Shown one piece after another: positions 21,189 to 37,625 of a stretch of DNA of 64,000 nucleotides (its first letter is position 1; each line of letters starts with the position of its first letter). The position numbers and the translations under genes are program-made. The stretch lies in NCBI RefSeq assembly GCF_000222485.1, contig NC_015914.1, positions 5,624,001 to 5,688,000 on the forward strand, in the 5' to 3' direction. Below the pieces are notes generated by a model. It had not been told where the DNA came from and did not search any database. It was given only the letters and a program-made list of their open reading frames with translations. The DNA comes from Cyclobacterium marinum DSM 745. Lineage in GTDB: Bacteria > Bacteroidota > Bacteroidia > Cytophagales > Cyclobacteriaceae.

Positions 21189-22775
21189 TTACTCCTCAGA
21201 AACACTAAACCCAAGCTTGTCCAAACCTTCTTGCACTTCTGGGGCAGCCATAAATAACTCCCATCCCAATCCTGTGCGATAATTCTCTATCATGGCTACA
21301 ATGGGTCCCTGATCAATGGCCAAATACCGCTGTGGATACCAATCCTTTTCCGGACTTAAGGCATCATAAAAACCATAACGCCCAAAAACCTTTTCACCAT
21401 AATTGTAATATAAATTCCTGATTACCGCCATGCTTTCCTCCGGGGTATACGGTATGGAGGACAAGGCTGCAGTGGGCGAAATCACGCCCAAATCTGCTCC
21501 CGGCTTGTGGGCTGCATAGCCTGTTACCGTATAACTTGCCGTTAGGCCCCAAAGGTCTTCACCATAGCCCTTAAAGCCACCTTCATTTTCAACACACCAT
21601 TGCCGATTGATCAAAGTATGGTTGCGGTTGTTTTCCCAATAGTTAGCATATTTATCTGCTAATCCTCTGGGGTCCAAACCCAAATAAGAATAATGAGACC
21701 AGAACAATGGGCCACCATACTCAGGCGATCCGTTGTGTTTGAGGGGCAATTGGTGTCCATAGGCTTCGGTATTCCCTACAATTTCACCATTCCTTGCCCA
21801 GCCTTTATGGTAGACCGAAGCCGGCACAGCATGTGTTGGAGAGGATGCCGCCAACACATAGGTAATCATACATTCATCATAGCCCTTTATGCCAAAATTC
21901 TTTTGCCACCCAAAATTAGGAGACCAGTGCCAATACAATATATCTTGCCCCCCCTGAGTATACCAGGTCCAGTCCATTGATTTCCATAGCTCATCTATCC
22001 TATTGGCCAATGCTTTCTCTTGCTCATTGCCGTTTTTGTAATATTCCCTTACTGCCAAAAGCCCCTGCATCAAGAAGGCTGATTCAACCAGGTCTCCGCC
22101 ATCATCATCCTTACCAAAAGGCTTCACTTTACCATTTTCTCCATGGATCCAATGGGACCAAACCCCATGAAACCTGTCGGCATTTTCCAAAAAGTCAATA
22201 ATGCGCTCAAAACGTTTGAAACCCTCTTCTCTGCTCACCCAAGCTCTCTCAATTCCGGCAATCAGACCAAATAGTCCAAAACCTGTCCCTCCTGTGGTCA
22301 CTACATTTTGGTCATTTTGGGGATAGTTTCCATCCATATGAATACGCTCTCTTGCCATTCCTGAATTGGGTTCTGCACCTTCCCAAAAATACCGAAATGT
22401 GTAATACTGCACCATGTCCAATAGTTCTTCATCCGTCATGGATCGGGTAGCAACGGTAGTCTCCCCCAAACTCTCTGTATCGTCTTTTAATTGGGCTTCC
22501 ACCTTGTAAGAAAGTGTAAGCTCAGTTCCCAAGTCATTGACGAAATCAAGGTAAATGGTGTCCTTAATACTTACTCTTTCTGTATAATCGCTGTCTTCTT
22601 TTTTAACGAAAACAGTATAAGATTCAGCTCCTAGGACAGGCTCCCATTGCAATTCTACATGCCTGGCATAGCCTTTGGCAAGGATTCTATTAGATGAGAC
22701 CTCTTTTTCGGAGCAGCCTAAAACAAGGAGTCCAATCCCGATAATAATAAAATATGCATTGAATATCTTCTTCAT
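21189..22775 (-). CDS. PF10091 glycoamylase-domain lipoprotein (GH144-like endo-beta-1,2-glucanase)
   Basis: Predicted surface or periplasmic lipoprotein (signal ending LLVLGC, cysteine near residue 21) with a fibronectin-III-like domain at about 25-110 and a glycoamylase (PF10091) alpha/alpha barrel from about 115 to the end. Family segments are YTFRYFWEGAEPNSGMARER, VTTGGTGFGLFGL, RFHGVWSHWI, DDGGDLVESAFLMQGLL, WHWSPNFGW and DQGPIVAMIENYRTG. In Bacteroidota, PF10091 enzymes of this kind form GH144 and cut beta-1,2-glucan. It is the last gene of the operon and a paralogue of the preceding one. Glucanase specificity is inferred from family and context; older annotation calls these glucoamylases. 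Confidence 0.85.
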   Translation of the reverse strand: MKKIFNAYFIIIGIGLLVLGCSEKEVSSNRILAKGYARHVELQWEPVLGAESYTVFVKKEDSDYTERVSIKDTIYLDFVNDLGTELTLSYKVEAQLKDDTESLGETTVATRSMTDEELLDMVQYYTFRYFWEGAEPNSGMARERIHMDGNYPQNDQNVVTTGGTGFGLFGLIAGIERAWVSREEGFKRFERIIDFLENADRFHGVWSHWIHGENGKVKPFGKDDDGGDLVESAFLMQGLLAVREYYKNGNEQEKALANRIDELWKSMDWTWYTQGGQDILYWHWSPNFGWQKNFGIKGYDECMITYVLAASSPTHAVPASVYHKGWARNGEIVGNTEAYGHQLPLKHNGSPEYGGPLFWSHYSYLGLDPRGLADKYANYWENNRNHTLINRQWCVENEGGFKGYGEDLWGLTASYTVTGYAAHKPGADLGVISPTAALSSIPYTPEESMAVIRNLYYNYGEKVFGRYGFYDALSPEKDWYPQRYLAIDQGPIVAMIENYRTGLGWELFMAAPEVQEGLDKLGFSVSEE

Positions 22776-22810: not shown

Positions 22811-24775
22811 TTAATAAGTAAAACCTAACTTATCCAGGCCTGCTTTCACTTGTTCATTTTTCATAAATTGATTCCATAATAATCCGCTTCTATGGTTTTC
22901 AATCATTATAATTATTGGCCCCTGGTCTATGGCTAAGTAGCTGTCAGCAAACCAATCATCGGTAAGGTTAAAGGCATCATAAAAACCATATTCTCCCCAT
23001 AACTTATCCCCCAAACTATAATAATAAAATTTGAGTGCTTCCATAGAAGCTTCCGGGGTATAGGGCATGGCCGAAAGGGCCGCTGTTGGTGTCACAACAC
23101 CTATGTCATTTGTTGGGGAATGCGCACCATAACCTGCTTGATTGTCGCTGGCTGTTAGTCCCCACATTTCCGCACTATACCCTACAAATCCCAAACTATT
23201 TTGTACTGCATAAGCCCTATGAATCTTACTGTGACTCACATTCTGATCCCAATAGTTTGCATATTGGTCTTGAAGAGATCTAGGGTCTAAACCTAAAAAT
23301 GAGTAATGCGAATAAAACAGTGGGCCTCCCATCTCAGGACCTAAAGGCAGGACCTGATCGAAATAGGTATTGCCATTGACCATAGCTCCAGACCTGGCCC
23401 AACCCTGGTGGTACACCTCTGGGTCAATAGCATGGGTTGGAGAAGCTGCGGCCAAAACATATACAATCAAAGCCTCATTGTAGCCTGTCACAGGCAAATT
23501 CATATCCCAGGCATGATTGGGGGACCAATGCCAGAACAATTTGTTCTGACCTCCTCGGGTATACCATTCCCATTCAACTTCTTCCCACAGCTTGTTGATC
23601 TGCCCTATCATTTCATTTTCTTTTGGATTGTTGGGGTCCAAATATTCTTTTACCGTTAACAACCCTTGCGCCAACAGTGCTGTTTCTACAAGATCTCCTC
23701 CATCATCTTTGGGACTGAAAGGAATCACTTTCCCTGTATTTCCATCCAACCAATGAGGCCACGCCCCATGAAACCGGTCAGCTTTAGACAAAAAATCTAC
23801 GACTTTTCTCCACCTTTCCACACCTTCACTTCTACTGATAAAGCCTCTTTCTATTCCCACAATAAGTGCCATCATGCCAAAGCCCGTTCCCCCTGTGGTC
23901 ACAAGATCTCCGGATGTATTTCTTTCCCTGATCATCCCACTGCTTGGATGAGCAAAATCCCAAAAGTATTTAAAGGTTTGTTCCTGAATAAGTGTTAATA
24001 AGGCCGCATCATCCAAAGCCGGAAACTTATTTTCTTCAGATTTCCCGGTATAAAATTCCAAGGTAAACGCTTCCAGAACTTTAGGTTCAGCTGCTTGAGC
24101 AAGGTCCTTGATTGTAAAAGTATGCTTTTTGAAATCCTTTAGTTTATCTGCACTTTTTACAAACCAGGAGGCATCATCATCTCCTGCCTCTAATAGCAGT
24201 TCCTTGGCCACTCCATCTTGTGTTAATTCAAGGTGCTCCAATGTTAGGGCGGTAGGCTTAGAGAAGGTGAGCTTTAGGGAAAAGGAGACGGCCTCATTTG
24301 CCCAACGGCGATTTCCAATCCATTCAGCTCCTTGGATCTCAAAATCCACTAGGCTTGAAGCTGCTGATTGGGTGGTGTAATTTACACTATAGCCCAAAAA
24401 AAGTCCTTCCATGGCCCCATTTAGCCCCTCCTCGATTTCCAAGACATAGGTGGTACCGGGTTTCATCAAACCAATAACCTGTATCCTGACCTCCTTATTT
24501 TCACTGAAGAAGTTGAGATTAAAATTTACGGATTGACCCGACTCTTTTTCCTTTATCTGAATAGATTCCTCCAAATTGACCTGATCAACTGCAGAAGAAA
24601 AATATATGGTAATGCTTTCATTGGTCTCTATTCCAGAATTTTGATCGTAATCCTGACTTAAGACCAGAGATCCTGCCATTACCTTTGTTACTTGCAAAAT
24701 AGGCTGTTCGACTGTTTCCTCCTGACAGGAAAAGAATATAATAAGGAAAAAAAAGCAATAAGTTATTCTAGGCAT
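22811..24775 (-). CDS. PF10091 glycoamylase-domain lipoprotein with Ig-like N-terminus (GH144-like)
   Basis: Second PF10091 enzyme, 654 residues, with a lipoprotein leader ending IIFFSC (cysteine at 17). The N-terminal 240 residues form Big_5/Ig-like domains (TNESITIYFSSAVDQVNLEE, then a second module with FSKPTALTLEHLELTQ), probably spacers or glycan-binding modules. The catalytic domain from about 260 shows FKYFWDFAHPSSGMIRER, LVTTGGTGFGMMALI, DRFHGAWPHWLDG, KDDGGDLVETALLAQGLL, WHWSPNHAWD and AIDQGPIIIMIENHRSG. It parallels the downstream paralogue but has a different N-terminus, so the two may act at different places or on different chain lengths. Spacing between them is 35 bases. Confidence 0.85.
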   Translation of the reverse strand: MPRITYCFFFLIIFFSCQEETVEQPILQVTKVMAGSLVLSQDYDQNSGIETNESITIYFSSAVDQVNLEESIQIKEKESGQSVNFNLNFFSENKEVRIQVIGLMKPGTTYVLEIEEGLNGAMEGLFLGYSVNYTTQSAASSLVDFEIQGAEWIGNRRWANEAVSFSLKLTFSKPTALTLEHLELTQDGVAKELLLEAGDDDASWFVKSADKLKDFKKHTFTIKDLAQAAEPKVLEAFTLEFYTGKSEENKFPALDDAALLTLIQEQTFKYFWDFAHPSSGMIRERNTSGDLVTTGGTGFGMMALIVGIERGFISRSEGVERWRKVVDFLSKADRFHGAWPHWLDGNTGKVIPFSPKDDGGDLVETALLAQGLLTVKEYLDPNNPKENEMIGQINKLWEEVEWEWYTRGGQNKLFWHWSPNHAWDMNLPVTGYNEALIVYVLAAASPTHAIDPEVYHQGWARSGAMVNGNTYFDQVLPLGPEMGGPLFYSHYSFLGLDPRSLQDQYANYWDQNVSHSKIHRAYAVQNSLGFVGYSAEMWGLTASDNQAGYGAHSPTNDIGVVTPTAALSAMPYTPEASMEALKFYYYSLGDKLWGEYGFYDAFNLTDDWFADSYLAIDQGPIIIMIENHRSGLLWNQFMKNEQVKAGLDKLGFTY

Positions 24776-24836: not shown

Positions 24837-25946
24837 TTAATTACTTTCAGTAGAAATAATCCCTTTTATTTCTTCTTGGCTCAATACGGAATCAAAAATC
24901 CTCAGCTCATCAATCAAGCCTGAAGTAGATAAATGACCCCAGCCTGCAAACCTGGGAGCTCCGGAGCCAACAGACAATAAGTCACACCCCGTCCAGTCTA
25001 TACCCGGAAAACCGTTTTGACTAACTACTTCACCATCGATATAAACAGTAGCTTGATCCGGACCGATCGTAAAGGCAATATGACTCCATTCGCCGGTGCT
25101 TGGATCAATGTCGGCAGCAGCACCGCCATCAAACCAACTTTCACCTGTGCCTGTTCCTATATTTAATTTTATCCGTTGCATGCCTCCGGCGTTTTCTCTA
25201 AACAGCCTAAAGCCTGAGGTTCTATTGTTCATTGCTGATGGATTGGTTTCATCCGGAGGTCCCATCACCAGAAGGCCTGCCCTGTCCGGATCGGCGTTAA
25301 CCTTGTACCAGAAGACGGCACTAAATGAGTTGCTCTTCAAGCCTTCAGTAGGGAATTTCAGATAGGAGTCGGTATTTCCGGCATAAGCTTTGGACACAAT
25401 GCCATCGGCAAAGGCCGGCGCACCAGCAATATCAGGAGATAAAAGCTGAATCAATTCCACATAATCCCCATCAAATGGCAAGTAAAACACCTCATTGTCA
25501 TAAATGGGTTGATAAGGCTCCGTTTTTTCAAAAGTGATGGACTCAGTAGCCGATTTACCGGACATGTCTGTGGCCGTTACTTCAAGCAAATGTTGCCCAT
25601 TGGTTAGGCCTTCAAAATTGTATACAGATAAAAACCTCCTATAATCGGGAAAATCATTGAAACTAGCAATTTCGCTTCCATCCATAACCAATGAGACCCT
25701 CTCAATTTCAATATCATCAATTACCTCCAAGTCTATATTTATGTCGGTCACATCCTCAACAACACGAATTTGAGTTCCTTCACTTGGGAAATTAACAGTG
25801 ATTTCAGGCGCCTCATTATCCGAGTCCGGTGCCACATAGTCGATATCATCAATGTATCCATCTGTACATGAACTGATGATTATAGACATCAAAACAATAA
25901 AACTTAACCTATTCTTTATCATTGGATTACATTTTATTTTTTTCAT
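24837..25946 (-). CDS. LamG-like jelly-roll surface lipoprotein with Ig-like domain
   Basis: Predicted lipoprotein (SIIISSC) with an Ig-like domain at about 45-140 (APEITVNFPSEGTQIRVVED) and a concanavalin-A/LamG jelly-roll domain at about 155-365, including TGEWSHIAFTIGPDQATVYI and STSGLIDELRIFDSVLS. Such proteins in the SusE/SusF position of a glycan locus usually bind the polysaccharide at the cell surface. The ATG at 25946 overlaps the SusD stop by one base (TAATG), suggesting coupling; an internal ATG at 25922 would give a more compact leader MIKNRLSFIVLM. Confidence 0.8.
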   Translation of the reverse strand: MKKIKCNPMIKNRLSFIVLMSIIISSCTDGYIDDIDYVAPDSDNEAPEITVNFPSEGTQIRVVEDVTDINIDLEVIDDIEIERVSLVMDGSEIASFNDFPDYRRFLSVYNFEGLTNGQHLLEVTATDMSGKSATESITFEKTEPYQPIYDNEVFYLPFDGDYVELIQLLSPDIAGAPAFADGIVSKAYAGNTDSYLKFPTEGLKSNSFSAVFWYKVNADPDRAGLLVMGPPDETNPSAMNNRTSGFRLFRENAGGMQRIKLNIGTGTGESWFDGGAAADIDPSTGEWSHIAFTIGPDQATVYIDGEVVSQNGFPGIDWTGCDLLSVGSGAPRFAGWGHLSTSGLIDELRIFDSVLSQEEIKGIISTESN

Positions 25947-27500: not shown

Positions 27501-30500
27501 TTAAAGTTTGATATTTAATCCAAGCGTATAAGTGCCCGGTATAGGATACACTTGGCGATCTATACCATCGGCGACTTCAGGATTAAAGCCATTGTAGTTA
27601 AAAAGGGTAAGTGGCCTATCCGCAGTAAGTGTGATTCTACTTTCCGGAAAGTTCAAACCAAATAGTTGCTTGTCTTTTAAAGCATAGGTCAATCGAACAT
27701 TTTGAACCCTGAAATAGCTACCATCTTCCACAAAATAATTGCTTAGGTTTTGGTTCCAGCTCTTTCTAAGACCGGCTGCAGAAGGGTATTTGTTGGAAGT
27801 TCCCTCTCCCCTCCATAGGTTTTCTGCCAATTCAGCATCAATGTTGGTATCGTTAGTGAAAATTATTTCTCCCCTTTTCCGGTTGAGAATACTATTGCCA
27901 ACTTGGCCTTGGATCAAAGCAGAGAATTCAAAGTCTCTATAAGTAAAACCGGCATTGAATCCATAGGTATATTTGGGCAGAAATGAACCAAGTACTACCC
28001 TGTCTTCATCATTAATTAGCCCATCCTCATTTTGGTCTCTGAATATTAGGTCTCCCGGCTGTAAATTATTTTCTGAAATAAACTGAGAGGTATAACCATA
28101 ATTGTTGATTTGTTCTTCGGTCTGAAAAACACCATCCGTTTCATACCCGTAAAATGCAAGGTAAGGTTGACCTACGATGGATCGTTGTCTGAATTCAGCT
28201 GACCCTGCATCTAAACTTTCCGGTCCACCTAAACTTAAAACTGTGTTTTTCAGAGTACCAATGTTCCCTCCGAAATAATAAGAAAATTCAGGACTAACGA
28301 TGTCTTCCCAATTTAGTGAAAGCTCTAGGCCTTCATTTCTAATCTCTCCCACACTCCTTCTTTCACTTGCTCTAATCACCGGCGGAATAATGCTAACTGC
28401 CAGATTTCTGGTGTCTCTGACAAAATAATCAGCATCGAGAGCCAATCGTTCACCAAAAAACCTGGCATTTAAGCCAACATTTAACTCTACTGTGGTTTCC
28501 CAACGGTCGATGAGGTCAAAAGTCGGATCCAACCTCCGGCCAATTACCAAAACACCATCATAGGCGCCCCTGTTTTCTACCAATTCGGGGGCACCAACTG
28601 AAGAATTGATTCCATCGTTTCCAAGTTGTCCCCAAGAGCCTCTGATTTTTAAGAAATCTATTGCCGAAACATTAAAAAATGATTCTTCTGAAAGCACCCA
28701 TCCTGCTCCAAATGTGGCAAAGTTTCCCCACTTTTGCTGGAATTTATTGTTACCATCTCTTCTAAATGTTCCATACAAAAGGTATCGGTCTGCATAATTA
28801 TAAGCCACTCTTGAAAAATAAGATTGGTAGAAAAGTCGGTTTCCACCATCACCTATACCATTTAGGTCATAATCTGTAGCATTATTTAGATACCAAAACT
28901 CCTCTTCACCTCTTATAGGATCAGGATTGAGGTTTTCTCCACGAGCAAATAACACTTCATTCGTTTCACTCCTAAATGATTGACCTAAAACCACGGTTAG
29001 GTTATGTAGATCAAAATTATTTTGGTAGGTTAAAAAGTTGTCCCAAATCTGGTCAAACCTGCTAAATGAATTTCTTCGCAGGGAGGATTGTCTCTCCTCC
29101 CTACCGTCACTATAAGCAAACCCTACATTTCTGGAATTAACATTTTCCATACTGAAATTGTAAGAGGTTTTAAAAGTTAAGTTATTGGGAATAATCTCTA
29201 TTTCAGAATAAAAATTACCCAATAATTTGGCCACTTTATTTCTGTTGTCTGAATAAAGTAAATTGTAAAAAGGATTTTGGTTGCTTCTGTATCCTAATTG
29301 TTGAGCATTGGACAAACGATAGGGTGTAGCATCTGTATTGCTCTCATCGTAAACAGGCAAGATAGGTACTGCAAAATAGGAACGGAACCAAGCCCCATTG
29401 TCTCCATTGAATTGTTCAGCCGTACTTAAATTTAAATTACCTCCTACTGTCATCCATTCTTTTACATCTGTATCTAGCTTAACCCTAAAGTTCATTCGCT
29501 GATAACTATTGCGGGTCTCTTTCATTAAACCTTCTTGGTCAAAATAACTAGCACCTATGGAATACCTTGTCTTGGTACCTCCTCCGTTGAAAGAAAGATT
29601 GTGGTTTTGAATCGCTGCCGGGGCCATCATTTCCGAATACCAATCCGTATTTACTGCGGGTAAGGAGGGGTCTACATAACTTCTTCCATACCTCTGAATG
29701 GCATTTTGTACAAATGCCATATCAGCAGCCGATCCGGTTTCATTTACATATTGAACAAACTGCTGGGAATTGGCCATTTTCAAAACGTTTTGAGGATTTT
29801 GAATGCCGTAATAGCCATCGTAAACGATTTCAGGTTCTTGGTTGTAGTTTCCTCCTTTGGTTTCAATAACTACCACCCCAATGGCAGCACGAACCCCGTA
29901 TATGGCAGACGCAGAGGCATCCTTTAATACAGAAATGGATTCGATGTCATTGGGATTGAGAAAATCAATATTCTCAAAAAACATCCCGTCTACAACATAT
30001 AAAGGAGCTCCTCCTCCTTCAAACGACCCTACTCCACGAACCCTCACGGTGGGAGATGCTCCTGGAGCGCCATTACTTACAATTTGTACACCTGCAACCC
30101 TTCCTTGAAGGGCTTGCATGGCTTGGGAATTTGGAGTTTTAACAATGTCCTCTGATTTTACCGTGCTAATGGCCGACGTTAGGTCTCTTTCTCTTTGAGT
30201 ACCATAGCCAATGACAACCACTTCTTCAAGTCCTTGTGCATCTTCTTCAAAATTAACATTGATTGTACTTTGGTCACCAACAGTGATCTCCTGGGTTTCA
30301 AATCCTATAAATGAAAAAACCAGAACCGATTCTGAGGAGCTGACCTGCAATTCATAATTGCCATCAATATCTGTGACAGTTCCATTTCCTGTATTTTTCT
30401 CAAGGATATTAACCCCCGGAATGGACTCCCCTGAGGGGTCCTTGACGGTACCACTTACCGTTACCTCCTGTGCATACAATGCCTCGGATTTGGAGAAGAA

Positions 30501-30590
30501 AAGTCCGGTAAAAAGAATTGCTGAAATTAGTAATGAAAAAGGGATTTTGGGTTTAAAATTTCCTTTTTCAATAGTAAAGGGAAAATTCAT
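27501..30590 (-). CDS. SusC/RagA TonB-linked outer-membrane transporter (beta-glucan locus)
   Basis: A 1029-residue TonB-dependent transporter. After a leader ending ALYAQ near 41 comes a carboxypeptidase-D-like domain (VSGTVKDPSGESIPGVNI to about 115), then the linker GLEEVVVIGYGTQRERDLTSA, a plug with RVRGVGSFEGGGAPLYVVDG and DIESISVLKDASASAIYGVRA, and a beta-barrel ending YTLGLNIKL. This is the first gene of the operon SusC-SusD-LamG-GH144-GH144; together with the next gene it forms the import complex. No anti-sigma/ECF pair lies upstream; instead the 7TMR-DISM/transposase-domain gene does. Confidence 0.96.
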   Translation of the reverse strand: MNFPFTIEKGNFKPKIPFSLLISAILFTGLFFSKSEALYAQEVTVSGTVKDPSGESIPGVNILEKNTGNGTVTDIDGNYELQVSSSESVLVFSFIGFETQEITVGDQSTINVNFEEDAQGLEEVVVIGYGTQRERDLTSAISTVKSEDIVKTPNSQAMQALQGRVAGVQIVSNGAPGASPTVRVRGVGSFEGGGAPLYVVDGMFFENIDFLNPNDIESISVLKDASASAIYGVRAAIGVVVIETKGGNYNQEPEIVYDGYYGIQNPQNVLKMANSQQFVQYVNETGSAADMAFVQNAIQRYGRSYVDPSLPAVNTDWYSEMMAPAAIQNHNLSFNGGGTKTRYSIGASYFDQEGLMKETRNSYQRMNFRVKLDTDVKEWMTVGGNLNLSTAEQFNGDNGAWFRSYFAVPILPVYDESNTDATPYRLSNAQQLGYRSNQNPFYNLLYSDNRNKVAKLLGNFYSEIEIIPNNLTFKTSYNFSMENVNSRNVGFAYSDGREERQSSLRRNSFSRFDQIWDNFLTYQNNFDLHNLTVVLGQSFRSETNEVLFARGENLNPDPIRGEEEFWYLNNATDYDLNGIGDGGNRLFYQSYFSRVAYNYADRYLLYGTFRRDGNNKFQQKWGNFATFGAGWVLSEESFFNVSAIDFLKIRGSWGQLGNDGINSSVGAPELVENRGAYDGVLVIGRRLDPTFDLIDRWETTVELNVGLNARFFGERLALDADYFVRDTRNLAVSIIPPVIRASERRSVGEIRNEGLELSLNWEDIVSPEFSYYFGGNIGTLKNTVLSLGGPESLDAGSAEFRQRSIVGQPYLAFYGYETDGVFQTEEQINNYGYTSQFISENNLQPGDLIFRDQNEDGLINDEDRVVLGSFLPKYTYGFNAGFTYRDFEFSALIQGQVGNSILNRKRGEIIFTNDTNIDAELAENLWRGEGTSNKYPSAAGLRKSWNQNLSNYFVEDGSYFRVQNVRLTYALKDKQLFGLNFPESRITLTADRPLTLFNYNGFNPEVADGIDRQVYPIPGTYTLGLNIKL

Positions 30591-31062
30591 AGGTTTTTGG
30601 GATTAGGTAATTTTAATAGTTTATGGTTAAAATCAAATCCAATTTGATTCGAGTATAAAAATAGAAACAATGAAAGGTCTGACTATAAAAAACAGGGAGT
30701 AAACACAATCAATTACCTTCAACACCTCCTTATTTTTACCAAAAAATACCGCATGGATATCAGTTAAAAACATCATTTAATCAAAATGAGAAGCTTTTTT
30801 AGAAATTTTGTATCGGATGAATAACAAGCTACTAAATCGGCTGTATTGTCCCCATCAAAAAGTAATTAATCCCATATTTTTCGTCTAATTCAGGTAGGGC
30901 ATTTCTATTGGGTGTAAACCTAGCATTAAAAAAATACTCAACCATATTACCTTTTCCAGGGAGGTTAAGTAAGACTTTCAAGGAGTGAAAATTCCAAATG
31001 TTAGCCCTTTAATTTTTTTCCGGCTAAGCCTACTTTTTAAGGAAACTTTGAATTTATTTGGG
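30591..31062. other. Regulatory gap upstream of SusC
   Basis: The 472 bases between the receptor/transposase-domain gene and SusC carry no gene. They should hold the promoter of the beta-glucan operon and, if the upstream protein regulates it, its binding site. No exact consensus promoter or long palindrome stood out. Confidence 0.5.
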
Positions 31063-32955
31063 TTAATAATCTACCATTTCTGAAAGTACAATTTCCTCCC
31101 AACCTCCATCAAAATCCGGTTCACTGTCGATCCTTGTTTGAATTTTTTTCCGGAATGCCCAAATTGTATTTCTTCTTAGATCAAGAATAGTTGCAAGTTG
31201 ATCCAGAGTTAATTTTTCATCGGTGAGGTAGGAAGCGTAAATGATGTAAAAGGCCTTGTCCAATGGGAATTTTATCCCATGAAAAATTGTACCTGCTGTT
31301 ACAGAATTAATGTGCCCACATTTGGTACACCTTCGGCTAAAAACTTTATTCGCCTTTCCATATTTGTTATTGCCACATTGACTACATTGAAATGTATCCG
31401 CCCACTTCAATTCTTCTAGATACCTGTAGCAAGCGGATGGATCCGGAAAAATCTCTCTAAACTCAGGAAGTGTTAAAGATTTCTGGGTCAATCTGGCTTT
31501 AAAAGAGGCTCTAATGGAGCTTTTTAATTTCCAATTGTCTTTGTCCAATAAGGCATTGATCCGTTTAATCTCCTCATCCTTTGCTTGAAGCTGACTATTG
31601 TAATTTTCCAGTAATTTATTTTTAGCCTGAAGTTCGGCAGTTCTAATGCTTACTTTGGATTCCAGTTCTTTGTTCACCTTTTCCTTCAAAGAAATATTTT
31701 CTTTGTATTGGGCAAGAGATCTTTTTAAAGCCTTGTCACGAATCTCTTTCATCAACCTTATCCTATCACCAAGTGCGAAGGACAGTAGCACCATCTCCAA
31801 AAGAAAGGCAATGTGCAGGCTGTAATAAACTAGTGTGGTATGTGGAAGTATGGCATAATTTGCCAAGACTTTAATGCTAATGCCGAAAAACAAAACACCA
31901 TAAGCCATGACAAAAAATCGAGCGGCTTTGTATTGTTTTATCAACAAATAAACGGCAGTAGTAAGAATCAATAAAAAAGGTAAACTGTCAAAATAAGTTA
32001 GTTCAAAATAATTGTGATCAACAAAAAGCCCCATACAAAATAGCATGAATTTACCTGTTAATGACAACCACAAAGCATAATGAAAGATTCGGGCTTTTCT
32101 CCTTGTGTTTAAAAATCGAACGGTAAACAGAATGGCCCAAAAGACGATTGAAAAACTAAAGACACCATTGACGATGGTATTCCATTGAGGGAAATTTGGC
32201 CAGAAATATTGAAAACCTATCCCATCAAGGCTCATGGCATACAAGCCTACACTCAAGAGATAAAGGATATAATAAACGTATTTCATTTCCTTTACAGCCA
32301 AGAAGATTAAAAAATTATAAAAGGCAATTATCAATATCATTCCATAAAATAAACCATAAAGGAAATACTCACTTAAAGCATAATGCACAAAGCGGTTCAT
32401 AGACCTCAGGGCTATTCGAATATCTGCTTTTTGGGTAGAATTAATTTTAAAGTAAAAATTTGAAATACCTGCTGTATCATTTTCCAGTTGCAACTGAAAG
32501 TTTTTATGGTTGAAAAGGCGCTGCGAAAAAGGATAATTGTCTCCCAAGATCATCATTTCATAGCTCCCATCTGATGTGGGGATATAGGCCTCGATATGAT
32601 CTATACTTTGATCATAAAATTCCAATAACCACCTTTTTTGACTTTCGGGGTTATTGTCAATGGAAAGCTTAACCCAATAGGTATAATTGGTATTGAACTT
32701 ATTTTTGCTGAAATCCGGCCTAATTTTTATAAACTGTTGGAATTCTTCTTGACTTATATGCCCAAATGTCAAAGTATTGGTACTGTCTTCATAAAACTCA
32801 AGCTGATCGATGGCATATATCCTTTCATTCCAACTATCGTCAATTCTAAAGGTAGCCTCACCTGAAATCCTCTGCGCCCAGCTCAATGAAATAGGAAGCA
32901 AAAATAACATTCCAATTAGCCATACATGCTTATTCAATGATTTATCCATCATCAT
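31063..32955 (-). CDS. 7TMR-DISM membrane receptor fused to IS1595-type zinc ribbon and HTH
   Basis: A 630-residue predicted membrane sensor. After a leader (ending SWAQ, residue 28) comes a periplasmic 7TMR-DISMED2-type jelly-roll domain (about 35-185), then seven membrane helices (about 193-398), then a coiled coil (about 402-472). The C-terminus from about 495 matches the N-terminal part of IS1595/ISXO2-type transposases: FPDPSACYRYLEELKWAD, a zinc ribbon with C524, C527, C543 and C546, then SVTAGTIFHGIKFPLDKAFY and a helix-turn-helix around LTLDQLATILDLRRNTIWAF. The DDE nuclease domain is absent, and the protein ends soon after. Usual 7TMR-DISM outputs are histidine kinase, GGDEF or LytTR. 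I infer a membrane-tethered DNA-binding regulator, possibly of the adjacent SusC operon 472 bases downstream. Confidence 0.85.
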   Translation of the reverse strand: MMMDKSLNKHVWLIGMLFLLPISLSWAQRISGEATFRIDDSWNERIYAIDQLEFYEDSTNTLTFGHISQEEFQQFIKIRPDFSKNKFNTNYTYWVKLSIDNNPESQKRWLLEFYDQSIDHIEAYIPTSDGSYEMMILGDNYPFSQRLFNHKNFQLQLENDTAGISNFYFKINSTQKADIRIALRSMNRFVHYALSEYFLYGLFYGMILIIAFYNFLIFLAVKEMKYVYYILYLLSVGLYAMSLDGIGFQYFWPNFPQWNTIVNGVFSFSIVFWAILFTVRFLNTRRKARIFHYALWLSLTGKFMLFCMGLFVDHNYFELTYFDSLPFLLILTTAVYLLIKQYKAARFFVMAYGVLFFGISIKVLANYAILPHTTLVYYSLHIAFLLEMVLLSFALGDRIRLMKEIRDKALKRSLAQYKENISLKEKVNKELESKVSIRTAELQAKNKLLENYNSQLQAKDEEIKRINALLDKDNWKLKSSIRASFKARLTQKSLTLPEFREIFPDPSACYRYLEELKWADTFQCSQCGNNKYGKANKVFSRRCTKCGHINSVTAGTIFHGIKFPLDKAFYIIYASYLTDEKLTLDQLATILDLRRNTIWAFRKKIQTRIDSEPDFDGGWEEIVLSEMVDY

Positions 32956-33435: not shown

Positions 33436-34863
33436 CTAAAACCACCTGCTAAAAATACCAGACCTTAATCTTTTAGGTTTTATATGGTCAGCTTCCATCT
33501 CATAAGGAAGTTGCCAGACCTTACCTTTGCTGTCACCAAAATACATTTGGCTTTTGCTAAAATCATTGGGGTCACCATCTGCCCAAAAGTATAAAAATGG
33601 ATCGGCACCATTTTCCACCCTACGGATATAATTATGGTTTCGTTTACTTCCTTTGGTTAGCTTTTTGGTTTTGCTCCATGTCTTTCCTTTGTCAGCACTT
33701 TTCCACATTTCTACTTCACCCCCTGCACCATAAAGCTGAGGTGAATCCTTGGTGGGTCCTATGACCATCCACTCATCACCATCTATCCACAAGCTACCCA
33801 TATCATAATTTTGATCAGATTGAGTAATTATATGGTCTTGCCATTCACTTCCATCCCAATGGACTACGTGCCAATTTCTAGGGCCATATTTTGGGCCAGG
33901 TTGATGCCCTTGACCTTCTACATAAAGTGCTATAGGATTTCCATTGGAGTCAAAATTTATATCTTTCAAATAAACGTTTCGCTTTTGACTGAAATACTCT
34001 TTGACCAAACCGGAAGATGCAATATCCTCCACAGGAAGGCTGACCACATTTCCATAAATATCGGTCCAAGTCTTTCCAAAATCTACGGTTTGGTAATAAT
34101 ACAAATTGGTTCTTAAATCCACATTTCCATTGGGATGCCAGTTACAAAAAAATGCGATTTTTTCACCGTTCTGCCCGGAGATTTGGTAGTGACCACTGTT
34201 TTTATCTCCAGGTCTTTTTATCCCCACAAGGTGCTGGTCTGAAGTCCAATCTTCACCATCACTACTTGTTTCAAAATACAATTGGCGAACTCCTGTATAC
34301 TTGGTAAATAAATTTAGGAAGCCTTTTCCGGCTAGGTATTTTGGTTGAGGGTAAGTCATTTCTTCTTCTGAAACTTGCTCAAATGACGCGGTACTGTAGG
34401 GCAATGTACTTTTGTATTTAAAGCCCATTCTTTTACTTCCTCTTCCACTAACAAAAACCCATATATAACCTTGTTTATCAATCGCTAAACTTGGATTGTC
34501 ATGAGGATCATCTACGCCTAATTTATCATAGACAATTACAGGTTTTGAAACCATGCCGGTGTTATGATCAAATTCACCTATCATGCATAACAAATACTTT
34601 TCATCTTCACTTCTAGTACCACCATATACGAAAAAAGTACGGTTGACTTCCGGTGAATAAATGGCAAGAGGTATATGTTTGGCGGTATAGGTTCCAAGGC
34701 CTCCCGAATACTTGTCTCCAAATTCAGACTTTTGGCCCAGTGTAAACCAAATCCCTTTGTATCCATCTACGGTAGGGTAATTTTCTTGGGCAAATACACT
34801 AGTGCAGGAAAAGGAAAAAAACACCAATAAACTTAAAACAAAACAGTTACGTGAAATCTTCAT
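33436..34863 (-). CDS. Exported BNR-repeat (BNR_4) beta-propeller protein
   Basis: Predicted exported seven-bladed propeller of the BNR_4 type. The ATG at 34863 is preferred over an upstream TTG at 34887 because it gives a clean signal peptide (MKISRNCFVLSLLVFFSFSC, cleavage near VFAQ). The mature part opens VDGYKGIWFTLGQ and includes DDPHDNPSLAIDKQGYIWVF, an ISGQNGEKIAFFCNWHPNG segment and Asp-box-like repeats (TVDFGKTWTDIYG, SADKGKTWSKTK). Some proteins of this fold are polysaccharide lyases, including ulvan lyases, and others are uncharacterised, so activity is open. It lies between the receptor gene and a lone response regulator, and its terminator makes it a separate unit. Confidence 0.75.
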   Translation of the reverse strand: MKISRNCFVLSLLVFFSFSCTSVFAQENYPTVDGYKGIWFTLGQKSEFGDKYSGGLGTYTAKHIPLAIYSPEVNRTFFVYGGTRSEDEKYLLCMIGEFDHNTGMVSKPVIVYDKLGVDDPHDNPSLAIDKQGYIWVFVSGRGSKRMGFKYKSTLPYSTASFEQVSEEEMTYPQPKYLAGKGFLNLFTKYTGVRQLYFETSSDGEDWTSDQHLVGIKRPGDKNSGHYQISGQNGEKIAFFCNWHPNGNVDLRTNLYYYQTVDFGKTWTDIYGNVVSLPVEDIASSGLVKEYFSQKRNVYLKDINFDSNGNPIALYVEGQGHQPGPKYGPRNWHVVHWDGSEWQDHIITQSDQNYDMGSLWIDGDEWMVIGPTKDSPQLYGAGGEVEMWKSADKGKTWSKTKKLTKGSKRNHNYIRRVENGADPFLYFWADGDPNDFSKSQMYFGDSKGKVWQLPYEMEADHIKPKRLRSGIFSRWF

Positions 34864-35160
34864 AGGGATCGGTTTTTGACGACCCAAACATATGCATTAT
34901 AAGGAAAGAAAAAAAGCAAAATGATAAGTCCACAGCTTCATATGAAATTTAAATTTCCCTGTCACCTTATTTTTCAGGAGTCTTTCTGTGGCTTTTAGAA
35001 AGTGAGAGGATAAAAAATTATTCTTCTTAAATTATATAAAAAATTAAAGTATGGTTTGGTAAATAAGGCTTATGATGTCAAAATATAATTGTTGAGAAAA
35101 TACACATTTGAATCAATAGCTACCCAAACCATATTTTTTTGAAGTATTACTATATATTAA
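34864..35160. other. Intergenic region, AT-rich
   Basis: The 297 bases between the response regulator and the BNR gene hold no gene and no strong hairpin. The BNR promoter is expected here. Confidence 0.45.
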
Positions 35161-35541
35161 CTATTTCAACCCGAATTTAACTTTCAAATTAGTGAAATCC
35201 TGTAAACTGAAAGGTTTAATCCAAAAGCCAACAATCCTTTCATAGGTTTTGGCCTTTAAACGATCAGCATCTTCAATGGATGATGTGATGATAATAACCT
35301 CTAATTCAAAGTCTATGCTTATTTTTTCCAATTCATCCAATACTTCCCAACCGGACAATCCGGGCATATTAATATCTAAAAACATTAGATATTTACTTTC
35401 ATTTGCATTAACGGTCAAAAATGACAAAGCATCCTCACCATTGTTAAATGAAATTATTTGATGCGAAATCCCAGCTTTCTGCATCAATTTTTTTTGTAAC
35501 AATATGACGATTGGGTCATCGTCTACCAAAACTATTTCCAC
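35161..35541 (-). CDS. Single-domain CheY-like response regulator
   Basis: A 126-residue receiver domain without an output domain. The acidic pocket is VDDDP at residues 6-10, the phosphoacceptor is D56 in FLDINMPGLSGWEVL, the conserved Ser/Thr position is in IIITSS and the lysine is in WIKPF. The length equals one receiver domain. No histidine kinase lies in the window, so its partner is elsewhere. It stands alone, with long AT-rich gaps on both sides. Confidence 0.93.
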   Translation of the reverse strand: MEIVLVDDDPIVILLQKKLMQKAGISHQIISFNNGEDALSFLTVNANESKYLMFLDINMPGLSGWEVLDELEKISIDFELEVIIITSSIEDADRLKAKTYERIVGFWIKPFSLQDFTNLKVKFGLK

Positions 35542-36209: not shown

Positions 36210-37625
36210 TTAATGGTCAAACATTTGTTCGTAATGAGGGATTGTGGCAAGAATCCCCCCACTTTTCTCATAAAAATCCTTTCCGGTGGGGTAAACACCA
36301 TTTTTAGTTTTTACCCATTCTTCGTTGGCCATAGGGTGATAACTTACCATTTTGTCCCAATTCTTATAATACTGATGGCCATTTGTTTCTTGAAGGCCAA
36401 GTGGCATATCCGGAAATGAGTGCAATCTTGCAGCCACATTTTTATTCCAATCCACCAAAATAGGGTTTACTGTAAGATCTGCACAAAAACACGGTACGTT
36501 TTTTTCGTAGGCTGCCTGAGCAATCTTCATTGTCATACTCATTGTCTTGGCAATGGCTTTAAGTGCAATGGCTGAATAGCCCTGTTCAATTCTTTCTAAG
36601 GCATCTTCCACTGTATGGGCACTTTCATCCGCGGCTATCCTTACACCAAGGTCACCAACAAAAACCTTATTTTTTTCTCCAAAGGGTTCTTCAATGACTG
36701 CAATTTGGTCAAAAGCCCCAATTTTTTTTGCATGGTCAAGAAAACGCTCTAAGGTTTCTTTCTTTTCATACCTTTCATTGACATCAAAATAATAAGGTAT
36801 TTTACCATTTTTAGTGTAAGGGGTTTCTCGATCACCCAAAGTTTTATGAACCGCTGTCAAAAATTCTATATCCTTGGCCAGCATTTCCTTTTGTGTACCT
36901 GCTGCCCCAGTTTTCAATTTCATGATAAAATGTCCCTCGTCTGCTGCAGCTTTTATGTCTTTTATTGAAGCCCCCACACTAAAAGAAGGAATACTTGCTA
37001 CCTTGTCATGTTTTTGAGATAAGCCCGGACGATAAGCTTCGGGTATCATCTCATCAAAGTTTTTCATCCCATTTTCTTCTCCATACAAGAGCCAGATCGC
37101 ATTGTCTACCGGAACCAATGAGTTTAGAGCAAAGGTAGTTTTAAGGTCAGGATTTCCGGTAATCTTTTGTCCATAGGCATACACCTCAGGTAAAACCTCA
37201 TCAAGCAAAGTAATTGGATCGACAAAGCTATTACCTTTAATAATTTGCAAAGCCCGCTCCGTCATGGCATACATCAATGCATTCCCTCCCGTAGTTGAAT
37301 GATTTTGGAACACCGTCTTATCCGACCAAAGCGTTCCCTGTGTCCCTATTCCAATTTTATGCCTCCCACTTTCGGATTGCATCAGGGCAACAGCTTGCCA
37401 AGCCTGTGTGATGGCGCTGCCTTTAAAACGGTAAGGGTATAGTGGTTCTCTCTCGAAATTTGAATCTGTATGAGTAATTTTTATTTTTTTCATCTTTCTG
37501 CTTATTTTCTCAGACTTACCAAAACCAAAGGAAGGGCTCATGCCTAATCCACCGGCTGCCAAAGCAACCGTTGACCTGCTTAAAAATGCTCTTCTACTAA
37601 ATCCATTATTGTCTTTCTTCTCCAT
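36210..37625 (-). CDS. Enolase-superfamily (mandelate racemase/muconate-type) protein with Tat leader
   Basis: Predicted exported enolase-superfamily enzyme, 471 residues. The twin-arginine leader SRRAFLSRSTVALAAGG lies at 9-25. Candidate catalytic lysines are in IMKLKTG (KxK) and IALKAIAK; candidate metal ligands are the aspartate in YYFDVNERY, glutamate in IEEPFG and aspartate in AADESAH. These match the muconate-lactonising/dipeptide-epimerase side of the superfamily. In a sulfatase operon it may act as a sugar-acid dehydratase, epimerase or cycloisomerase in the periplasm, but the substrate is unknown. It is the last gene of the operon, 9 bases after the cytochrome/propeller gene. Confidence 0.8.
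   Translation of the reverse strand: MEKKDNNGFSRRAFLSRSTVALAAGGLGMSPSFGFGKSEKISRKMKKIKITHTDSNFEREPLYPYRFKGSAITQAWQAVALMQSESGRHKIGIGTQGTLWSDKTVFQNHSTTGGNALMYAMTERALQIIKGNSFVDPITLLDEVLPEVYAYGQKITGNPDLKTTFALNSLVPVDNAIWLLYGEENGMKNFDEMIPEAYRPGLSQKHDKVASIPSFSVGASIKDIKAAADEGHFIMKLKTGAAGTQKEMLAKDIEFLTAVHKTLGDRETPYTKNGKIPYYFDVNERYEKKETLERFLDHAKKIGAFDQIAVIEEPFGEKNKVFVGDLGVRIAADESAHTVEDALERIEQGYSAIALKAIAKTMSMTMKIAQAAYEKNVPCFCADLTVNPILVDWNKNVAARLHSFPDMPLGLQETNGHQYYKNWDKMVSYHPMANEEWVKTKNGVYPTGKDFYEKSGGILATIPHYEQMFDH

What the first reader, a model, noticed from the sequence alone, without database searches (positions are those of the whole stretch)
31063..32955. Membrane receptor fused to a transposase DNA-binding module
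The protein joins a periplasmic 7TMR-DISM sensor, seven membrane helices and a coiled coil to the zinc-ribbon (C524, C527, C543, C546) and helix-turn-helix of IS1595/ISXO2-type transposases, and the DDE nuclease is absent. Known 7TMR-DISM outputs are kinases, cyclases or LytTR domains; I know of no described use of this transposon part as output. It sits 472 bases upstream of a SusC operon that has no ECF sigma/anti-sigma or hybrid two-component gene in the window, so it may be a domesticated membrane-tethered one-component regulator of glycan use.
Basis: partly seen in the sequence, partly recalled or inferred. Interest (0 to 1): 0.87.

Follow-up and report, generated by a model that had tools for sequence, protein, structure and literature searches.

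The report
Sensor receptor using transposase DNA-binding domain
A bacterial membrane sensor has taken over the DNA-gripping part of a jumping gene and, judging by conserved neighbours and paired DNA sites, most likely uses it to control sugar-eating genes directly; the design recurs in many related bacteria.

Summary
Window 31063-32955 (minus strand) encodes an intact 630-aa protein: 7TMR-DISMED2, 7TMR-DISM_7TM, coiled coil, IS1595-type zinc ribbon and HTH, no DDE nuclease. It is no accident: the zinc cysteines are invariant in 61 of 61 orthologues, and 45 sampled fusion domains fall on one side of a branch (99/98) from 20 transposase-like ORFs. SusC is the next gene in 53 of 61 Cyclobacteriaceae loci and within three genes in 55 of 80 loci elsewhere (Pedobacter, Hymenobacter, others), beside different glycan enzymes. 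Upstream of susC lies a non-palindromic site in two head-to-tail copies: the second-best site falls 63-67 bp from the best in 37 of 53 gaps (null mean 1.9). Related cores occur in Sphingobacteriales (76-78 bp) and Hymenobacter (24-25 bp). Of 20 sampled relatives with the same GH144 operon but no such gene, 14 have a FecR-type gene there; the site pair is weak or absent before susC in 17 of 18 scored. Best reading: a membrane-tethered, ligand-gated transcription regulator, here of a beta-1,2-glucan locus, working like SusR but built from other parts. DNA binding, ligand and sign of regulation are inferred. Our paper searches found no description.

The parts
31063..32955 (-). 7TMR-DISM receptor fused to IS1595-type zinc ribbon and HTH (630 aa)
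32407..32805 (-). periplasmic 7TMR-DISMED2 sensor domain (residues 51-183)
   Evidence: 107 bits
31762..32370 (-). 7TMR-DISM_7TM membrane domain (residues 196-398)
   Evidence: 156 bits
31507..31761 (-). coiled-coil linker (residues 399-483)
   Evidence: mean consensus 0.71, as high as the 7TM part; coiled coil inferred from the sequence and from chance matches to coiled-coil families, no coiled-coil program was run
31312..31437 (-). IS1595-type zinc ribbon (residues 507-548; C524, C527, C543, C546)
31126..31272 (-). helix-turn-helix of the transposase DNA-binding part (residues 562-610)
   Evidence: below the model's cut-off; AlphaFold2 model of residues 480-630, mean pLDDT 86; weak structural matches headed by HTH folds
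30809..30832 (-). candidate operator, upstream copy GTAGCTTGTTATTCATCCGATACA
30745..30768 (-). candidate operator, downstream copy TTTAACTGATATCCATGCGGTATT, 64 bp from the first
27501..30590 (-). SusC/RagA TonB-linked transporter (1029 aa)
   Evidence: TIGR04056, 816 bits
25946..27487 (-). SusD-family lipoprotein
24837..25946 (-). LamG/Ig-domain protein, likely surface glycan-binding protein
   Evidence: Laminin_G_3; role inferred
22811..24775 (-). PF10091 enzyme, GH144-like, with Big_5
   Evidence: PDB 5gzh endo-beta-1,2-glucanase, E 1.5e-155
21189..22775 (-). second PF10091 enzyme, GH144-like
   Evidence: PDB 5gzh, E 1.4e-197

Best explanation
It is a membrane-tethered one-component transcription regulator of the adjoining SusCD operon. 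The periplasmic DISMED2 domain senses a glycan fragment (here probably a beta-1,2-gluco-oligosaccharide made or imported by the operon's own products); the 7TM part and coiled coil carry the signal into a cytoplasmic dimer; the zinc ribbon and HTH, taken from an IS1595-type transposase, bind two head-to-tail copies of a non-palindromic site of about 18 bp, about 65 bp (six helical turns) apart, upstream of the susC promoter and most likely activate it. Shown by computation: architecture, conservation, grouping of the fusion domains, linkage to SusCD loci, the paired conserved site, and its weakness or absence before susC in 17 of 18 scored loci that lack the gene. Inferred: that this protein binds that site, the ligand, dimerisation, and activation rather than repression.
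For: Zinc cysteines invariant 61/61 and output domain about as conserved as the 7TM part. SusC is the next gene (ORFs of 110 aa or more) in 53/61 family loci and within three genes in 55/61; elsewhere 40/80 and 55/80. SusC genes are not so common as to explain this: 56 found in the own 6.2-Mb genome, a lower bound since 56 of 117 candidates were scored. Paired motif: with no limit on spacing, the second-best same-strand site lies 63-67 bp from the best in 37/53 gaps (null mean 1.9, maximum 5 over 50 sets); a two-site fit allowed 62-68 bp chose 64/65/66 in 27/17/6 of 53, log-likelihood 751 against 150-195 in ten resampled sets; held out, 18/30 at 63-67 bp against a null mean of 0.9. The top 3 of 208 control intergenic regions are the promoter regions of rearranged loci with the regulator (L087, L044, L052). 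In the own genome the only two perfect matches to a pattern written from the two sites are these two. Same core found from scratch in two other lineages, second site at 76-78 bp in 19/31 and 24-25 bp in 11/17 (null means 0.4 and 0.2). Same operon without the gene: FecR-cluster gene directly before susC in 14/20, pair score 5.0 or less in 17 of 18 scored. Regulator and operon enzyme: 165 genomes both, 2 regulator only, 68 enzyme only, 155 neither.
Against: No binding, expression or ligand data. Training the motif on clade B and testing on clade A gave 0/23 at the expected spacing. 16 of 53 gaps do not have their second-best site at 63-67 bp; L075 and L078 lack a convincing pair even in the fit, and L079 and L085 fall below the control level under stricter removal of relatives. 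Six of 61 family loci and 24 of 80 others (plus one with no information) have no SusC within three genes; in L057 and L058 none was seen in 19 kb. In the loci without the gene the best pair score anywhere in 13 kb reaches 17.1, and L251 scores 12.2 before susC, so a score alone does not prove a site. Shared ancestry inflates all these counts.
Confidence: 0.82

Rival explanations
1. The zinc ribbon/HTH is a decayed remnant of a transposon insertion with no function in the protein.
For: The domain is clearly of IS1595 type, and short IS1595-like ORFs occur in other Bacteroidia genomes.
Against: Zinc cysteines invariant in 61/61 orthologues; 45 sampled fusions from several families group together; no other match to the domain profile in the own genome; in two searches for the domain in proteins of roughly 350-1100 aa every hit is fused to the same receptor, 81/81 and 76/76.
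Confidence: 0.02
2. The paired site is bound by a different regulator; the fusion protein acts by protein contact, or on other genes.
For: No direct binding data; the sites were found only by conservation.
Against: The core recurs beside the fusion gene in three lineages whose enzymes differ, its two window copies are the only perfect pattern matches in the own genome, and the pair is weak or absent before susC in 17 of 18 scored loci with the same operon but without the gene.
Confidence: 0.1
3. It is a repressor, released by ligand, rather than an activator.
For: Nothing here measures the sign of regulation.
Against: Both copies lie upstream of a conserved block 106-111 bp from the start of the lower site that I read as promoter-like, a position more usual for activators; SusR, with the same operator layout, activates (PMC3878776, section 7).
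Confidence: 0.12
4. The 65-bp repeat is part of an RNA leader element, not a protein site.
For: It lies in the region 5' of susC.
Against: Non-palindromic direct repeats; the best site starts a median 178 bp from the start codon, with a promoter-like block between; no Rfam match up to E 1 in window 30400-31200.
Confidence: 0.04

Closest known systems
SusR-like regulators of Bacteroides
   Same: Membrane protein with periplasmic sensor and cytoplasmic HTH controlling SusC/D genes; predicted operator is two tandem direct repeats with centres 67 or 77 bp apart (PMC3878776, section 7); here 64-66 or 76-78 bp
   Different: Two SusR-type proteins found by context (L231_8, L232_5) have DUF6377 and one predicted membrane helix after the signal-like start, no DISM and no zinc ribbon; profile comparison gives probability 2.9%; the L231 repeat has another sequence
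7TMR-DISM receptors (RetS, LadS, RgsP, NicD)
   Same: DISMED2 and 7TM domains in the same order (PMC6107284 passages)
   Different: Outputs named there are histidine kinase, GGDEF, EAL and PAS domains; here a transposase-derived DNA-binding domain
IS1595/ISXO2 transposases
   Same: Zinc ribbon followed by HTH; L130_9 (296 aa), with DDE_Tnp_IS1595, is the closest full-length one in the class sample
   Different: DDE nuclease absent, single copy, fused to a receptor
ECF sigma/FecR control of SusCD operons
   Same: Stands before the same SusC-SusD-LamG-GH144 operon in related genomes (FecR cluster in 14 of 20 sampled; sigma and FecR confirmed by Pfam in the 2 tested)
   Different: Unrelated proteins; SusC there is longer (1119-1178 aa) than in the fusion loci (988-1071 aa)

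Membership tests
7TMR-DISM receptors | 7TMR-DISM_7TM domain | tested here: met
   PF07695, 156 bits against cut-off 29
7TMR-DISM receptors | extracytoplasmic DISMED domain before the 7TM part | tested here: met
   PF07696, 107 bits
7TMR-DISM receptors | one of the known cytoplasmic outputs (kinase, GGDEF, EAL, LytTR and so on; list partly recalled) | tested here: not met
   No such domain in the Pfam or NCBIfam scans. The family name allows diverse outputs, so this marks a variant, not exclusion.
IS1595 transposases | IS1595 zinc ribbon | tested here: met
   PF12760, 30.9 against 25.4
IS1595 transposases | DDE catalytic domain | tested here: not met
   No PF12762; NF033547 covers only positions 3-52 of 215
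IS1595 transposases | several copies at varying places | tested here: not met
   One copy in the own genome, in the same place relative to SusCD across genera
IS1595 transposases | terminal inverted repeats around the gene | not tested
   Looked for only around related transposases, not around this gene
SusR-like regulators | DUF6377 domain found in the context-defined SusR-type proteins | tested here: not met
   PF19904 hits L231_8 and L232_5 but not P0001
SusR-like regulators | homologous output HTH | tested here: inconclusive
   hhalign probability 2.9% over 25 columns, with only two SusR-type sequences
SusR-like regulators | tandem direct-repeat operator with long spacer before SusC/D genes | tested here: met
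   63-67 bp in 37 of 53 without a spacing limit; 64-66 bp in 50 of 53 in a fit limited to 62-68 bp; published 67 or 77 bp. As a predicted site only.
Hybrid two-component systems | histidine kinase, receiver and AraC domains | tested here: not met
ECF sigma/FecR | sigma-70 regions or FecR domain | tested here: not met
   none among 19 other window ORFs scanned

The most novel reading that the evidence does not exclude
The receptor is in effect a ligand-gated transpososome without its nuclease: as a transposase dimer pairs two transposon ends, the membrane dimer grips two end-like, non-palindromic sites a fixed number of helical turns apart, and receptor signalling sets that grip. A single capture of this module gave rise to a whole class of seven-helix receptors that regulate chromosomal glycan genes directly, with no kinase or second messenger in between.
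Probability: 0.2. Interest if true: 0.95.

Novelty: new variant of a known kind. Interest (0 to 1): 0.86.

Why it matters
It would give seven-helix bacterial receptors an output that acts on DNA directly, show a transposase DNA-binding domain captured and kept as a regulator, and add a regulator class to the known types for Bacteroidota glycan loci. The same operator layout reached with other proteins (SusR) points to a shared physical rule for membrane-bound dimers on DNA. The predicted sites make both questions directly testable, and the regulator predicts the control, and perhaps the substrate, of many unassigned glycan loci.

Tried and rejected

Rows dropped or limits before counts: four genome-contig loci that repeat loci already held (L139, L185, L188, L189); ORFs under 110 aa when naming the next gene in those calls; 13 of the 61 outside gaps were in neither lineage set; regulator matches weaker than E 1e-120 (19 of 186, picked by eye) were counted as absent; searches scored at most 3 first-look candidates per genome; the L036 control regions were counted twice by my script. 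The natural-experiment set is 20 of the 68 enzyme-only genomes, taken mostly from the best matches. The tree used 45 of 145 loci with a fusion.

Full report
What is there. Window 31063-32955 on the minus strand is an uninterrupted gene of 630 codons. Pfam gives 7TMR-DISMED2 (51-183), 7TMR-DISM_7TM (196-398) and Zn_ribbon_IS1595 (507-548, over its cut-off); the NCBIfam IS1595 transposase model matches only its first 50 or so positions at 562-610, the HTH in front of the nuclease, and below its cut-off; no DDE domain is reported. The genome is one contig of 6.22 Mb with four DISM genes; only this one matches the profile of the zinc ribbon/HTH domain. The nearest named relative in the protein search is Cyclobacterium sediminis (91%).

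It is conserved, not decayed. The protein search found 947 homologues and listed 120, mostly of about 630 aa with the same receptor domains, from Cyclobacterium, Echinicola, Algoriphagus, Anditalea, Litoribacter and others. Of 390 genomes of the family, 186 (47 of 84 genera) match at E 1e-60 or better, 167 at 1e-120. In 61 aligned orthologues, window included, C509, C524, C527, C543 and C546 are invariant; the zinc ribbon (mean consensus 0.68) and HTH (0.64) are about as conserved as the 7TM part (0.68) and more than the sensor (0.57). Two searches drawn from the C-terminal domain alone, open to proteins of roughly 350-1100 aa that share short exact words, returned 81 and 76 proteins, every one with 7TMR-DISM_7TM: within those limits I found this domain fused to nothing else.

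Origin. Outside the fusions, the domain profile matches ORFs mostly of about 250-350 aa in other Bacteroidia (56 of 295 class genomes match, fusions included); L130_9 (296 aa) has both the zinc ribbon and DDE_Tnp_IS1595. A maximum-likelihood tree of the domain from 45 fusions and 20 transposase-like ORFs puts all fusions on one side of a branch with support 99/98 (98% of bootstrap trees), next to seven transposases. This fits one capture followed by spread, though the root is not fixed by data.

Neighbours. In 60 fetched family loci plus the window, the next gene (ORFs of 110 aa or more) is susC on the same strand in 53 of 61; susC is within three genes in 55 of 61, followed by susD in 54 of the 55. 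The usual order is regulator, SusC, SusD, LamG/Ig protein, then one or two PF10091 enzymes or a GH3. Genes upstream of the regulator are shared mainly inside the genus. Both window PF10091 proteins match the solved endo-beta-1,2-glucanase 5gzh (E 1.5e-155 and 1.4e-197); GH144 is a beta-1,2-glucanase family founded on the Chitinophaga pinensis enzyme (PMC12102758, passages seen; that 5gzh is that enzyme, and that PF10091 is GH144, is recalled). So the local substrate is probably beta-1,2-glucan.

Beyond the family. A scan of one genome for each of 84,980 species with one conserved peptide pattern of the domain gave 309 encoding stretches; the best 80 made 78 loci, in Pedobacter, Mucilaginibacter, Arcticibacter, Chitinophaga, Hymenobacter, Siphonobacter, Sporocytophaga, Flavobacteriales bins and more. 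With six loci and four repeats dropped, susC is the next gene in 40 of 80 and within three genes in 55 of 80, with susD after it in 48 of the 55. Enzymes in representative loci differ: GH5, GH3, GH16, GH30, GH81, PL14, a chondroitinase-B/PL6 type, alginate lyase, GH88, GH2 and GH92. The receptor therefore looks like a class of glycan-locus regulators rather than the regulator of one substrate.

Candidate operator. De novo motif search in the 53 family gaps between regulator and susC gave a strong motif (log-likelihood 295 at width 20 against 72-74 in two letter-shuffled sets); its best site is on the susC sense strand in 53 of 53 and starts a median 178 bp before the susC start. With no limit on spacing, the second-best site on that strand lies 63-67 bp from the best in 37 of 53 gaps; when the best site is kept and the rest resampled, 1.9 on average and at most 5 in 50 sets. 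A two-site fit that allowed only 62-68 bp chose 64 (27), 65 (17), 66 (6) and 63, 67, 68 (one each), log-likelihood 751 against 150-195 for ten resampled sets. In fits with three-base windows of spacing, 60-62 and 63-65 bp both gave 701 (the two matrices can shift register against each other), all others from 30 to 110 bp gave 511-636. Consensus of the copies: TTGTTATTtAagCGtgAtA and AATGTTATTaAtgcGggAAA. Held out, a motif trained on 23 loci put 18 of 30 others at 63-67 bp (null mean 0.9, maximum 4 over 20 sets); the reverse training failed, 0 of 23. With close relatives removed from training, 51 of 53 gaps score above 8.5, 49 of 53 under stricter removal, while of 208 other intergenic regions in these loci only three exceed 8.5: the region before susC in L087 and L044 and the region after the regulator in L052, loci where operon and regulator have been rearranged. 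In L044 inserted genes separate regulator and operon, and the site pair has stayed with the susC promoter. In the own genome the pattern TGWTATYCATSCGRTA, written from the two window sites, has exactly two perfect matches, these two, five with one mismatch, and 70 in all up to two mismatches against 44 for the reversed pattern.

The same core elsewhere. The second copy lies 76-78 bp away in 19 of 31 (null mean 0.4, maximum 2) and 24-25 bp away in 11 of 17 (null mean 0.2, maximum 2); six of the 31 have 87-92 bp. At 10.5 bp per turn the main spacings are about 6.1-6.3, 7.2-7.4 and 2.3-2.4 turns.

A natural experiment. In the 390 family genomes the regulator (E 1e-120 or better) and the operon enzyme occur together in 165, regulator alone in 2, enzyme alone in 68, neither in 155; in the own genus 8 genomes have both and 4 neither. 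From the 68 I fetched 20 loci. No ORF in them matches the domain profile. In 14 of 20 the gene directly before susC falls in one cluster, which in the two tested by Pfam (L235, L244) is FecR, with a sigma factor before it; L250 has a Reg_prop/Y_Y_Y/GerE protein there. In the 14, SusC is longer (1119-1178 aa) than in the fusion loci (988-1071 aa). The best site-pair score before susC is 5.0 or less in 17 of 18 scored regions, the exception being L251 at 12.2 (one locus had no SusC, one only 20 bp). Caveats: 14 of the 19 regions are only 116-154 bp long, and the best score anywhere in 13 kb reaches 17.1.

How it works, most likely. [quoted passage not shown] The 7TM part and the equally conserved coiled coil would pass the signal to a cytoplasmic dimer; signalling helices do at low frequency connect signalling domains to HTH domains (PMC1592074, passages). 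The zinc ribbon/HTH then reads two non-palindromic sites in tandem, which fits a domain that once read transposon ends. SusR of Bacteroides is described as a membrane protein with periplasmic sensor and cytoplasmic DNA-binding part whose predicted operators are direct repeats with centres 67 or 77 bp apart, bound as dimers on one side of DNA six or seven turns apart (PMC3878776, passages and section 7). The likeness to 64-66 and 76-78 bp is striking. Yet two SusR-type proteins located by context (L231_8 beside GH97, SusC and SusD; L232_5 in a locus with SusC and SusD) carry DUF6377 and a single predicted membrane helix after the signal-like start, the L231 gap has its own 67-bp repeat of a different sequence, and comparison of the profiles gives no significant similarity. 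So it works like SusR but is not shown to be a SusR.

Verdict. In the text library searched no description was found (the last a poor test). Binding, ligand and sign of regulation await experiment.

Noticed in passing
window 35161-35541 (-), with 33436-34887 and 36210-37625: A stand-alone response regulator receiver domain sits between a BNR_4 protein and an enolase-superfamily gene; this order upstream of the receptor was seen in 7 of 61 loci, the window and six of its genus.
   Followed up: partly
L044, 3119-8828: Another SusC and a 460-aa gene lie between regulator and operon; the candidate operator stayed at the operon promoter.
   Followed up: partly
L173 and L174 (Pedobacter): Fusion-type genes of only 321 and 274 aa, divergent from SusC/SusD genes; possibly truncated receptors or mis-called starts.
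   Followed up: no
L058, L059, L060: The fusion gene is divergent from a second DISM-cluster gene, which in L058 has HATPase_c and a sub-threshold HisKA match; no SusC was seen near. Two DISM outputs may share a signal here.
   Followed up: no
L250 2049-4913 (+): In this genome the same GH144 operon is preceded by a Reg_prop/Y_Y_Y/GerE protein, a third kind of control for one locus.
   Followed up: no
L135_9, L136_13, L137_5, L138_7: IS1595-like ORFs of only 143-180 aa; L136_13 keeps just the start of the DDE domain. Remnants or possible stand-alone DNA-binding proteins.
   Followed up: no
Cyclobacteriaceae gaps, 106-111 bp from the start of the lower site: A second, partly conserved block that may be a promoter -7 element at nearly constant distance from the operator (51 loci).
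   Followed up: partly
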